From Bradyrhizobium sp. ISRA464 (lineage in GTDB: Bacteria > Pseudomonadota > Alphaproteobacteria > Rhizobiales > Xanthobacteraceae), in assembly GCF_029910095.1 (NCBI RefSeq), contig NZ_CP094526.1, forward strand, positions 4,898,001 through 4,962,000: a stretch of DNA of 64,000 nucleotides. Direction: 5' to 3'. The position numbers were made by a program, and so were the translations under genes. How positions within the stretch are numbered: position 1 is the stretch's first letter; every line of letters starts with the position of its first letter. The notes under the pieces were generated by a model. The model worked only from the letters and a program-made list of their open reading frames with translations. It had not been told where the DNA came from and ran no database searches. Below, piece by piece: positions 36,806-39,090 of this stretch.

Positions 36806-37153
36806 TTGTCCGACGACGATCGCTACAAAGAACACTTCAACCGTGCTCACGAGGCGGTGATGGCCGCGGCTGACGCACGCAAGAGCAGGATATTCGCCAA
36901 GTCCGCATTCCTCGTCTCCATGCTGACGCTTGCCGTTGCATTTGCTGGACTTCCTGAAGTGATGACGCACAGCGACCGCGCCGGCGATCACAGGTCAGCG
37001 GCGAGCTCCGGCAACGGAATTTTGCATGTGACGGGTGCGACAGAACGACCCGACGGGCAACTCACCGAAAACCCGTCAAGCCCTCGCGGGCAAAATATTT
37101 CTGTTTTCCAGAAGTGTGACTCAGTGTATGAATGGCCCGTCTCACCCGCTTGA
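36806..37153 (+). CDS. Possible small membrane protein running into repeat DNA
   Basis: 115 residues from a TTG. The first ~60 look natural: an acidic/helical start ('SDDDRYKEHFNRAHEAVMAA') and one hydrophobic span ('SAFLVSMLTLAVAFAGLP'). From about residue 70 the frame passes into the hairpin-rich repeat that begins near 37020, so the C-terminus is probably repeat-derived rather than selected. Expression is uncertain. Confidence 0.4.
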   Translation: MSDDDRYKEHFNRAHEAVMAAADARKSRIFAKSAFLVSMLTLAVAFAGLPEVMTHSDRAGDHRSAASSGNGILHVTGATERPDGQLTENPSSPRGQNISVFQKCDSVYEWPVSPA

Positions 37154-37267
37154 GGGGCGCTTCGCGATCGTCACGAGTGTCGGGTCGAGATGCGGTGGAC
37201 GCTGACTGCGCGACTGACGAGCACGCATGAGGCGGACGGTGAAGTCGTGCAGGCCTGACGCCCTAGT
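37020..37267. repeat. Left half of a hairpin-rich non-coding element interrupted by IS481
   Basis: A string of short perfect hairpins is visible: CGGGT/ACCCG (37032-37036 with 37048-37052), GACGGG/CCCGTC (37052-37057 with 37072-37077) and GCCC-TCGC-GGGC (37080-37091). It ends at the target duplication CCTAGT (37262-37267). Its right half resumes at 38309. From memory, similar sequence recurs in Bradyrhizobium, Nitrobacter and relatives; I could not check this. Confidence 0.5.
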
Positions 37268-38225
37268 TGTGGAGCCTCAAGAGGTTGTTCCCGGTTAATC
37301 CGAGCCTGCTGATCGGTGGCTTTGAGCCGAGACTGCCATGAGGACGATGCCAGTTGTAGCGGTGAAGCCATCGTGGCAGCTCCGCTGCTCTTTCTGTTGA
37401 GGTGTTGTAGGCCTGCGCGTAGGCCCATTCTCGTAGGCTGGTTTGAATGAAGCGTTCGGCCTTGCCATTGGTTTTGGGCGTATAGGGCTTGGTGCGGATG
37501 TGCTTGAGACCGAGACGCTTGCACGCCCTGAGGAAGGCGAAGGATTTGTAGCACGCGCCGTTGTCGGTCATGACGCGCTCTACCTTCACGCCCAGGCTCA
37601 TGTAGTAGGCCACTGCCGCCTTGAGGAAAGCGACGGCACAGCCCTTTCGCTCGTTCTTCATGACCTGGCTGAAAGCGATCCGCGACGCATCGTCGATGCA
37701 GACATGGACGTATTCCCAACCGGGCCCTTGACGGCGAGAACGCAGATTGCTCGACCCACGTCGATCGCTGGTGATCCGATGGCCGATCCGATTGAACTTG
37801 CCGAGCTTTTTGATGTCTAGGTGGATCAGTTCACCAGGATGCTGGCGCTCATAGCGCCGGATCGGCTCGGCCGGCTCCAGAGCAGCCAGCCTGTTCAAAC
37901 CGAGCCGGCGCAGGATACGGCTGACGGTTGCTGCTGAGACCCCGACTTCGAACGCGATCTGTTTGCCGGTGTGGCGCTGCCGGCGGAACGTCTCGACAAG
38001 GTGCATGTGGCTGCCGGGGTTTGGCTTGGCAAGGAATGAGGCCGTGAGGAACGACAAACCATCGACGCCTTCTGCGCGGAAGCGCTTGACCCATTTGGCG
38101 ACCGTCTTCGCCGTGACATTGAATTGCAGCGCGGCTGCGGCCTTCGTCAGGCCGCCCTCGATCACGCTCCGCACCATCGCCTCTCGACCTTTCGGCGTCA
38201 GAGGCGCATTCTTGTGGATGTTCAT
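37263..38225 (-). CDS. IS481-family transposase
   Basis: 320 residues from the ATG at 38225 (GGGGAGACC upstream). An N-terminal helix-turn-helix ('EGGLTKAAAALQFNVTAKTV') and a second one ('VGVSAATVSRILRRLGL') precede the DDE integrase core: D in 'LIHLDIKKLG', D in 'RVMTDNGACY' and E in 'NGKAERFIQ'. Intact and full length. Its TAG stop (37263-37265) lies outside the element, in the duplicated target site. Confidence 0.92.
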   Translation of the reverse strand: MNIHKNAPLTPKGREAMVRSVIEGGLTKAAAALQFNVTAKTVAKWVKRFRAEGVDGLSFLTASFLAKPNPGSHMHLVETFRRQRHTGKQIAFEVGVSAATVSRILRRLGLNRLAALEPAEPIRRYERQHPGELIHLDIKKLGKFNRIGHRITSDRRGSSNLRSRRQGPGWEYVHVCIDDASRIAFSQVMKNERKGCAVAFLKAAVAYYMSLGVKVERVMTDNGACYKSFAFLRACKRLGLKHIRTKPYTPKTNGKAERFIQTSLREWAYAQAYNTSTERAAELPRWLHRYNWHRPHGSLGSKPPISRLGLTGNNLLRLHN

Positions 38226-38308
38226 CTGGTCTCCCCGGGGAACACTGAAGCTTCGCAACCTCAGCTTGCTCGGTTCAGACCAGATGGACAACCTCCTGAA
38301 AGCTCACA
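37268..38308 (-). mobile_element. Complete IS481-family insertion sequence with 6-bp target duplication
   Basis: 1041 bp. The ends read inward as TGTGGAGCCTCAAGAGGTTG (left) and TGTGAGCTTTCAGGAGGTTG (right), imperfect terminal inverted repeats of about 23 bp. Both flanks carry the direct repeat CCTAGT (37262-37267 and 38309-38314), fitting the NCTAGN preference known for IS481. The intact transposase and exact duplication indicate a recent insertion. Confidence 0.92.
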
Positions 38309-38600
38309 CCTAGTGGCAGGTGTCGACTCCCAGGACGCAAAAGCGTCTCGCGGATGACGGTGACAAACAAGCCCAGTCTCGCCGGGGAGAGCACGTATAA
38401 GCCGTAAAACCATCGCGCAGGGAAAGCCGGAGTGTTTTCCGGTTTCACCTGTGGTCCTACCTCCGGTGCTTTTTGTTGCACCGGCCCCATGGGTGCGATC
38501 GGCACCCGGCTTTCCCTGCGCCCTCTGCTTCCAGAGCGGCGAAGATGGCACCAAACCTCGGACGCATCGCGCCGCGAGAATGCGAGCGTATGACTCACAA
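38309..38600 (+). ncRNA. Right half of the interrupted element: candidate structured RNA
   Basis: GCGCAGGGAAAGCCGG (38415-38430) and CCGGCTTTCCCTGCGC (38506-38521) are a perfect 16-bp inverted repeat. They enclose CCGGTGC/GCACCGG (38463-38469 with 38478-38484) and GGGTGC/GCACCC (38491-38496 with 38502-38507), giving a closed stem with two inner hairpins. GACGC-AAAA-GCGTC (38334-38347) precedes it. No protein-like frame. Strand is arbitrary; transcription is not shown. Confidence 0.4.
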
Positions 38601-38620
38601 GCCGCGCAACAAACTCGATG

Positions 38621-38740
38621 TCGTCCTGGCGAAAGCCAGGACCCATTGCCCCGAATGCTCATTGTTGCGTGACGCTGGGGCCACGTTCCCGTTTACAATC
38701 AAATGCGGTGGTAATGGGTCCTGGCTTTCGCCAGGACGAC
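38621..38740. repeat. Palindromic repeat, family D
   Basis: TCGTCCTGGCGAAAGCCAGG with ACCCATT on the left is mirrored exactly by AATGGGT and CCTGGCTTTCGCCAGGACGA on the right, about 70 bases apart. Each arm is itself a hairpin, so the unit can form two small or one long structure. It abuts the interrupted element. Confidence 0.85.
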
Positions 38741-39090
38741 AAATGACGAGCCCCGCCTACAACGCCCGCCGCGGAATATGGGTGCCGGCCTTTCCCGGGA
38801 CGACGATGGCAACAACACCTCGCGGTTGCGGGTCGCTGCTTTCGCAGGGACGACTCGGGAGAGCTCTCACGACAGCTTGCGCCGGCTGCGCAAGCGCAGT
38901 TGCTCGTCGGCTTCGAGGCTCGCCCAGCGACGCAATTGCGCCGCAAGGCTCGCACCTCCAGCGACAAAGGCGAAGCCTTTGCGCGGGGATGACGGAACTG
39001 GTGGAGCGAAGCTTCGTCGCTGGGCCTTGGCTTCGGACGCGGATTCACGCGATCCGTTGGTTCTTCACCATCCCGCGCATTGAGTGGGGC
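38741..39090. other. Repeat-rich intergenic DNA downstream of the amino-acid permease
   Basis: Fragments of repeat-like DNA continue: CCTTTCCCGGGACGACG, a CGCTGCTTTCGCAGGGACG segment like the right arm of family D, and GCGACAAAGGCGAAGCCTTTGC, which forms a hairpin around AAAGGCGAAGCCTTT (38975-38989). No convincing gene; frames on both strands are biased by the repeats. Confidence 0.5.

What the first reader, a model, noticed from the sequence alone, without database searches (positions are those of the whole stretch)
37020..38600. Hairpin-rich non-coding element, cut in two by IS481, that looks like an undescribed structured RNA or repeat family
Removing the 1041-bp insertion and one CCTAGT copy rejoins about 540 bases of non-coding DNA. 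The right half contains a perfect 16-bp inverted repeat (38415-38430 with 38506-38521) enclosing two further perfect hairpins (38463-38484 and 38491-38507), preceded by GACGC-AAAA-GCGTC (38334-38347). The left half has three more hairpins (37032-37052, 37052-37077, 37080-37091). A family D palindrome abuts the right end. No frame is protein-like. I recall similar sequence recurring in Bradyrhizobium, Nitrobacter and related genomes, next to the same type of palindrome, but I cannot verify this.
Basis: partly seen in the sequence, partly recalled or inferred. Interest (0 to 1): 0.72.

Follow-up and report, generated by a model that had tools for sequence, protein, structure and literature searches.

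The report
Dispersed multi-copy structured RNA gene family
The element cut by the insertion sequence is one of at least 63 scattered copies, in this one bacterial genome, of an intricately folded non-coding RNA gene about 400 bases long for which no earlier description was found, and which related genera carry in few copies behind a standard promoter.

Summary
Rejoined, the element (37049-37267 + 38315-38595) is one member of a sharply bounded ~500-bp intergenic repeat: at least 63 copies in this genome, tens of unscored candidates in most genus genomes, 1-11 scored matches per positive genome in ten other genera of the family, and at least 8 in one genome of another family. Across 199 copies the consensus fold is supported by covariation (the three best column pairs of the alignment are Watson-Crick pairs of the fold) and only one strand tolerates G-U pairs, so the folded molecule is RNA from the + strand. 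In 40 copies outside the genus the tail fold derived from the genus is 92% paired, with compensatory swaps. There the unit starts at a sigma-70 promoter (TTGACN-N16-19-TAWNNT in 22 of 35 copies, 29 of 11,400 control windows); within the genus only 4 of 199 copies keep that pattern. I read it as a dispersed family of promoter-bearing, ~400-nt structured RNA genes. No Rfam match and no printed description was found in the searches named. How it spreads and what it does are unknown; a mobile, SINE-like RNA gene and a multi-copy host RNA are nearly equally likely. The window copy is broken by an IS481-type insertion in a loop.

The parts
37049..37267 (+). left half of the repeat (5' boundary CCCGACGGGCAA at 37049), up to and including one CCTAGT copy
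   Evidence: information content drops to background left of this motif in the 130 of 156 full copies in which the anchor was found; homologous to uninterrupted copies
38309..38595 (+). right half of the repeat, starting with the second CCTAGT copy; 3' boundary about 38595
   Evidence: information content at background beyond it in the 103 of 156 full copies in which the anchor was found
37092..37134 (+). A+T-rich promoter-proximal segment of the genus-type copies (AAAATATT...GTATGAAT); promoter role inferred from distant copies
   Evidence: AT 0.61 versus 0.35 in the RNA body over 199 copies, canonical pattern in only 4 of 199; canonical promoter at the matching place in 22 of 35 distant copies; the sigma-70 scan of 36900-38900 found none
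37139..37191 (+). first hairpin domain of the RNA, 37139-37143 with 37187-37191 and inner hairpins; RNA start predicted just before it
   Evidence: consensus fold, one significantly covarying pair (cols 120/166)
37192..37198 (+). closing helix P1, 5' strand (pairs with 38410-38416)
   Evidence: 7 of 7 pairs form in the window, 99-100% paired across copies
37236..37240 (+). helix P3, 5' strand (pairs with 38401-38405)
37245..37256 (+). helices P4/P5, 5' strands (pair with 38391-38396 and 38385-38388)
   Evidence: 8 of 10 pairs form in the window
37257..37262 (+). hairpin P6, 5' strand (pairs with 38319-38324); its CCTAGT loop is the IS target
   Evidence: covarying pair cols 239/252
   Evidence: two significantly covarying pairs, one of them among the three best in the whole alignment; the consensus pairs form only partly in the window copy (5 of 7)
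38358..38384 (+). hairpin P8 (38358-38363 with 38379-38384)
   Evidence: covarying pair cols 295/313 with five pair types
38417..38519 (+). long tail stem P9 (38417-38431 with 38505-38519) enclosing P10, P11 and the P12 hairpin
   Evidence: covarying pairs cols 358/448 and 374/435; CM R2 hit at 38393-38523, 110.5 bits
38557..38578 (+). 3' hairpin P13
   Evidence: covarying pair cols 502/508
37268..38308 (-). IS481-type insertion sequence that splits the copy in the P6 loop
   Evidence: Pfam; an identical full-length IS at the same site of L132 and an identical 236-bp piece at the same site of L130
38620..38644 (.). REP-like palindrome just 3' of the element (an inverted partner at about 38719-38740); separate from the element
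   Evidence: sequence; a similar pair stands at the matching locus of G004, which lacks the element

Best explanation
Shown by comparative sequence: the element is one broken copy of a dispersed family of structured RNA genes. Each intact unit is a promoter-proximal region of about 90 bp followed by an RNA of about 400 nt (3' end not determined): a 5' hairpin domain, a nested multi-branch core (P1-P8), a long branched tail stem (P9-P12) and a 3' hairpin (P13). Selection acts on the fold of the + strand transcript. The unit is old: low-copy relatives with a sigma-70 promoter occur in several genera of the family, some at shared loci. It was amplified to at least 63 copies here. Inferred: the units are transcribed on their own; copies move as units, since the closest pairs examined share no flanking sequence; and the folded RNA is the working product, probably bound by a protein acting in trans. 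I give about 45% to a non-autonomous mobile RNA gene (SINE-like in layout, spread by an unknown enzyme) and about 40% to a host trans-acting RNA whose genes have dispersed. The window copy is probably dead: an IS481-type element sits in the P6 loop.
For: Copies: 63 distinct places in the own genome, a lower bound (union); 33 of 36 genus genomes, own included. Fold: of all column pairs of 199 copies, the three best by APC G-test are Watson-Crick pairs of the consensus fold, a level not reached in 20 tree-based null alignments; 9 of 112 consensus pairs at E<0.05; on A1 and A2 none of 500 shuffles reached the observed value on any of five measures. RNA strand: G-U 2812 cells versus A-C 535, 147 versus 16 in distant copies. 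Test on copies not used to derive the fold: 1062 of 1149 tail-pair cells (92.4%) paired in 40 distant segments (slid controls 35-52%), 11 of 30 pairs with double changes. Transcription unit: distant homology starts at HMM 86-126, the -10/start region, in 33 of 38 matches; TTGACN-N16-19-TAWNNT in 22 of 35 versus 29 of 11,400 control windows. Intergenic: 0 of 222 copies examined overlap a called gene. Unit dispersal: the five closest own pairs checked (91-94%) have unrelated flanks.
Against: No transcript was seen; no RNA data could be searched. In the genus only 4 of 199 copies keep the canonical promoter pattern, the window scan finds none, and none of nine copies in family f35 matches the same pattern, although TTGACT...TACACA stands there; so many copies may be weakly transcribed or dead. 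No terminator was identified. Patchy presence (54 of 198 family genomes, strict filters) speaks against an essential host RNA. No target-site duplication and no partner enzyme was found, against a classical transposon. The covariation test is home-made (R-scape-like), not R-scape itself; with the first 85 rows it gave two significant pairs, with 199 three, and one of the nine within-fold pairs (224/328) is paired in only 65% of copies.
Confidence: 0.82

Rival explanations
1. Purely DNA-level palindromic repeat (REP/BIME-like, cruciform or protein-binding site), with no role as RNA.
For: High copy number, intergenic, rich in inverted repeats, often followed by REP-like palindromes.
Against: G-U far exceeds A-C in the paired cells (2812 v 535; 147 v 16), which a symmetric DNA constraint would not give; long-range nested helices covary; a promoter stands at the 5' end in distant copies.
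Confidence: 0.05
2. Host trans-acting regulatory or housekeeping RNA that kept a host function in low-copy genera; amplification in this genus is dosage gain or neutral spread.
For: Single or few copies kept with fold and, in 22 of 35, a sigma-70 promoter in several genera; shared loci: groEL 1.3-3.4 kb upstream in 7 genomes of 4 genera, an SLT_2 transglycosylase gene downstream in 3 genera, a GGDEF gene 0.3-1.4 kb downstream in 4 species of one genus.
Against: No single universal locus among those read, no match in 144 of 198 sampled family genomes at this sensitivity, turnover of loci in the genus (ppc locus 9 of 34 filled).
Confidence: 0.4
3. Non-autonomous DNA transposon (MITE) of an IS.
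For: Sharp ends on both sides, dispersal as a unit.
Against: No target-site duplications: in 84 copies the longest shared flank words are no longer than in shuffled pairings; the two consensus ends are not inverted repeats of each other (read); selection on a 400-nt fold is not needed for a MITE.
Confidence: 0.08
4. Cis-acting leader (riboswitch-like) of downstream genes.
For: At the ppc and transglycosylase loci it lies just upstream of a gene in the same direction.
Against: Over 164 copies with both neighbours the downstream gene is co-directional in only 72; the bias is towards following a co-directional gene (103 of 164); the downstream genes named are of different kinds.
Confidence: 0.03
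5. Decayed protein-coding gene.
For: An ORF overlapping the right half has 34 fragmentary relatives, those with a name called hypothetical.
Against: No Pfam domain in the overlapping ORFs tested; indels of 1-2 nt in the most conserved parts; compensatory base changes.
Confidence: 0.02

Closest known systems
Br-REP1 / Br-REP2 and CGTC/GTAG REPs of Bradyrhizobium (PMC5082802 and PMC3733652; abstracts and passages seen)
   Same: dispersed, intergenic, palindromic, same genera; REP-like palindromes often follow the element
   Different: REPs are 20-40 bp (abstract of PMC3733652); this is about 500 bp, with a 400-nt fold and strand-specific pairing. [quoted passage not shown] that could be this one, but no sequence is given, and neither Br-REP consensus occurs in 156 element bodies (0 of 156 each)
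Large structured bacterial RNAs such as GOLLD, ROOL, OLE, HEARO (recalled)
   Same: hundreds of nucleotides, elaborate conserved fold, unknown or unusual function; HEARO is also mobile and multi-copy (recalled)
   Different: no Rfam match; sigma-70 promoter in distant copies and dispersal to tens of intergenic sites with different neighbours
Eukaryotic SINEs (recalled)
   Same: short promoter-bearing RNA genes dispersed in many copies without a protein of their own
   Different: bacterial; the promoter is upstream of the RNA rather than internal, so copying from the transcript alone would lose it; no target duplication found

Membership tests
any Rfam 15 family | covariance-model score at or above the gathering cut-off | tested here: not met
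   only a tRNA in the window; a permissive scan of 4 loci gave 12 miRNA-type matches, all far below their gathering scores
REP / BIME palindromes | 20-40 bp palindromic unit | tested here: not met
   unit about 500 bp with sharp ends; no Br-REP1/2 consensus in 156 bodies
MITE | target-site duplication | tested here: not met
   84 copies, no excess over shuffled pairings
MITE | terminal inverted repeats | tested here: not met
   by eye: the consensus ends CCCGACGGGCAAATCAC and ...TGTGTCT are not inverted copies of each other (read)
structured RNA gene | covariation supporting a consensus fold | tested here: met
structured RNA gene | own promoter at the 5' end | tested here: inconclusive
   met in 22 of 35 distant copies; the same pattern in only 4 of 199 genus copies, 0 of 9 f35 copies and not in the window
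structured RNA gene | detected transcript | not testable with these tools
   no RNA-seq available
HEARO / omega RNA | Rfam HEARO match or adjacent IscB/IsrB gene | tested here: inconclusive
   no Rfam match; neighbours were not searched with IscB/IsrB profiles, and Pfam was run on only a few neighbouring proteins
cis-regulatory leader | consistently upstream of, and co-directional with, the next gene | tested here: not met
   72 of 164 co-directional downstream
IS481-type insertion (the split) | IS481 transposase and a 6-bp NCTAGN target duplication | tested here: met
   NCTAGN for an IS481-family element in PMC2516522 (passages)

The most novel reading that the evidence does not exclude
A bacterial counterpart of SINEs: a selfish, protein-less, promoter-bearing RNA gene whose folded transcript (or its DNA) is recognised by an enzyme encoded elsewhere, and which has amplified at least twice (at least 63 copies in this genome, at least 8 in a genome of another family), with the RNA fold under selection because it is the ticket for spreading.
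Probability: 0.35. Interest if true: 0.9.

Novelty: new variant of a known kind. Interest (0 to 1): 0.76.

Why it matters
A folded RNA of this size in tens of copies, in genera that include model nitrogen-fixing symbionts, had no match in the Rfam copy searched here, and the protein search over it returned only unnamed or hypothetical fragments. If transcribed, it would be, as far as I recall, among the most copy-rich RNA genes known in bacteria, and it gives a direct test of whether bacteria host SINE-like RNA genes. The covariance models make the family findable in other genomes.

Tried and rejected
Rejected: protein coding, a known RNA family, plasmid or phage carriage (no match of the right half at blastn sensitivity), cis-leader, target duplications. 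Looking for a clean empty site failed: at the amino-acid permease locus of the window three relatives lack the element, but the region is rearranged; at the ppc locus 9 of 34 genomes are filled, but filled sites also carry other inserted DNA, so no base-exact insertion point was obtained. A gene gap upstream of the element in distant genera looked like a missing partner gene; the open frames listed for nine such loci gave groEL, other ordinary genes and short frames, but this was no systematic search for an enzyme. A boxA-like motif 3' of the element is enriched but unexplained.

Literature: full-text searches (exact sequence strings) gave no description of this element; most subscription papers are not held, and the 2012 small-RNA paper on this lineage is not held. 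PMC5082802: outline, abstract and 12 passages; PMC4842269: start of abstract and 3 passages; PMC3733652: start of abstract and 8 passages; PMC11109978: term counts only (none of six taxon terms occurs); PMC2516522: 2 passages. The other papers were seen only as search listings.

Limits: the own-genome count is a floor, because at most 40 places of the element were scored per search. Alignment rows: one search used 84 loci plus the rejoined window copy (85 rows) and left out 4 loci (L001, L031, L077, L076); one search kept 219 near-complete copies of the 300 HMM rows, then 198 unique plus the window copy. A1 and A2 used 60 of 82 and 60 of 68 non-redundant segments. In one search, 35 of 38 distant HMM matches (start at or before position 126) were examined; one of them, L398, and one of the 40 segments come from a MAG that is probably contaminated by the genus. 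Distant copies were found with model R1; the tail segments were then cut out by R2 hits, which use the tail fold, but no locus was lost at that step except L375, cut by its contig end. Promoter and boxA-like patterns were my own choice. The first null-model script ended in an error and was repeated.

Full report
1. What is in the window. The hairpins, the 1041-bp insertion and the CCTAGT duplication are as described. The insertion is an IS481-type IS. The same IS is inserted at the same CCTAGT in two further copies of the element in this genome: full length and 100% identical, in the opposite orientation, in L132, and as a 236-bp piece, 100% identical, in L130. An IS481-family element that duplicates NCTAGN is described in PMC2516522 (passages), so repeated hits in a multi-copy element with CTAG in a loop are ordinary.

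2. A dispersed repeat with sharp ends. The right half gives 40 scored copies among 111 candidates in the 8.46-Mb genome; a second query scored 40 of 147 candidates. The union of the places is 63, a floor. The left and right halves occur together and collinear in uninterrupted copies. Flanks anchored at both ends lose nearly all information within a few bases: left of CCCGACGGGCAA (130 of 156 full copies had the anchor) and right of ...TGTGTCT (103 of 156). None of 222 copies examined overlaps a called gene (my own simple gene caller); median distance to the neighbours is about 190 bp in 164 copies with both neighbours. Among 24 full own-genome copies the nearest-neighbour identity is 85-94%, median 90.6%; the five closest pairs checked share no flanking sequence. 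So the unit itself has moved, but I saw no very recent copy. Flanks give no target duplication (84 copies).

3. Range. DNA query: 33 of 36 genus genomes and 0 of 24 from other families; 18 of 397 in the order, among them two other-family genomes with partial matches only (104 nt in G258, 57 nt at E 7e-4 in G247). Covariance model R1: 54 of 198 genomes and 11 of 47 genera of the family (1-11 scored matches in the positive genomes of the ten other genera), 3 of 385 genomes of the class and 18 of 397 of the order, including genus g123 of family f35 with 8 matches, the scoring limit, in one genome and 1 in another. The nine f35 loci also have the tail (R2). No match in plasmid or phage records. 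The class-level hit outside the order (G936) is on short contigs of a MAG and closely resembles the genus copies; I treat it as probable contamination.

4. It is a folded RNA. An alignment of 199 copies, 615 columns, was tested with an APC-corrected G-test against 20 null alignments simulated on the tree. The three best of all column pairs are 261/286, 358/448 and 295/313, 93%, 99% and 100% paired, not matched in the null; the next pair has E about 1 and is not in the fold. An earlier run on 85 rows gave two significant pairs, both also in this fold's helices. Within the consensus fold 9 of 112 pairs reach E<0.05, spread over eight helices; one of them, 224/328, is paired in only 65% of copies. 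On the MAFFT alignments A1 and A2 no shuffle of 500 reached the observed value on any of the five measures, and the slid controls are lower; related sequences can inflate the shuffle control and the fold was derived from these alignments, which is why the tree-based null and the next test matter. G-U cells exceed A-C cells 2812 to 535, so the + strand is the RNA.

5. Test outside the genus. 40 tail segments from distant loci found with R1 were added to A2 by sequence alone. The fold from the genus is paired in 1062 of 1149 cells (92.4%; slid 35-52%); 11 of 30 pairs show double changes, for example G-C to C-G in 33 and in 38 segments and A-U to G-C in 30; G-U 147 against A-C 16. The segments were located by R2, which found the tail next to R1 at every one of the 40 loci, one cut by a contig end.

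6. It looks like a transcription unit. In 33 of 38 distant HMM matches the homology starts at position 86-126. There TTGACN-N16-19-TAWNNT occurs in 22 of 35 copies against 29 of 11,400 control windows; TATATTCC runs into the first helix in many of them. The f35 consensus has CTTGACTTTATTCCTAT...TACACA at the same place, although none of the nine matches the strict pattern. In the genus the segment is A+T-rich (0.61 v 0.35), but only 4 of 199 copies keep the canonical pattern and the window scan finds none. No terminator was recognised.

7. Loci. Orthologous positions exist. Upstream of ppc the element is present in 9 of 34 genus genomes; the G022 copy there is 86-92% identical to those at the same locus of G005, G011 and G029, and at most 81% over a comparable length to any other copy listed, its own genome's included (79%). 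It lies 1.3-3.4 kb downstream of groEL in seven genomes of four genera, upstream of an SLT_2 transglycosylase gene in three genera, and 0.3-1.4 kb upstream of a GGDEF gene in four species of one genus (groEL, SLT_2 and ppc named by Pfam, GGDEF from the sequence and recall). The three relatives with the window's permease lack the element there. Old, vertically inherited loci and turnover coexist.

8. Reading. The shown part is a dispersed family of structured RNA genes. The mechanism is inferred: patchiness, lack of a universal locus and repeated amplification look like a mobile element; long-kept low-copy loci with fold and promoter look like a host RNA. A promoter upstream of the RNA start is part of the moving unit, so copying from its own transcript alone would lose it; a DNA-level mover or a longer transcript is needed. 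I lean slightly to a mobile RNA gene.

9. Known work. No Rfam family. PMC5082802 (abstract and passages) describes Br-REP1/2 and mentions a larger repeat around Br-REP2, data not shown, which may or may not involve this element; neither consensus is in the element bodies, and Br-REP1 lies within 300 nt 3' in 1 of 156 copies. An ORF over the right half has 34 relatives, unnamed or hypothetical, which fits over-annotation of a non-coding element.

Noticed in passing
L132 and L130 (own genome), and window 37268-38308: The same IS481-type IS sits in the same CCTAGT of three copies of the element (full length in two, in opposite orientations; a 236-bp piece in L130): the repeat acts as a repeated IS target.
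   Followed up: yes
L002, L003, L008, L015, L026, L029 (3' side); L011, L013, L016, L026, L027 (5' side): Two DDE transposase genes (Pfam DUF772 / DDE_Tnp_1 / DDE_Tnp_1_6) with 99.9-100% identical flanks lie right beside many own-genome copies, in both orientations: recurrent insertion next to the element.
   Followed up: partly
within 200 nt 3' of the element: A boxA-like motif (CTGTTTGAMA...AA) in 17 of 156 genus copies and 5 of 38 distant ones against 23 of 2418 control windows; the likeness to rRNA boxA is recalled.
   Followed up: partly
37049-37134 and other genus copies: Genus copies carry a GGGCAAATCA-like motif at the left end, found at least twice in the upstream segment of 41 of 199: possibly an operator that replaced the ancestral promoter.
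   Followed up: no
L408-L415 (genome G373, family f35): An amplification of a distant version, at least 8 copies, with TTGAC and TACACA at the promoter position.
   Followed up: partly
38620-38644 and 38719-38740: Inverted pair of REP-like palindromes; a similar pair stands at the matching place of G004 without the element.
   Followed up: partly
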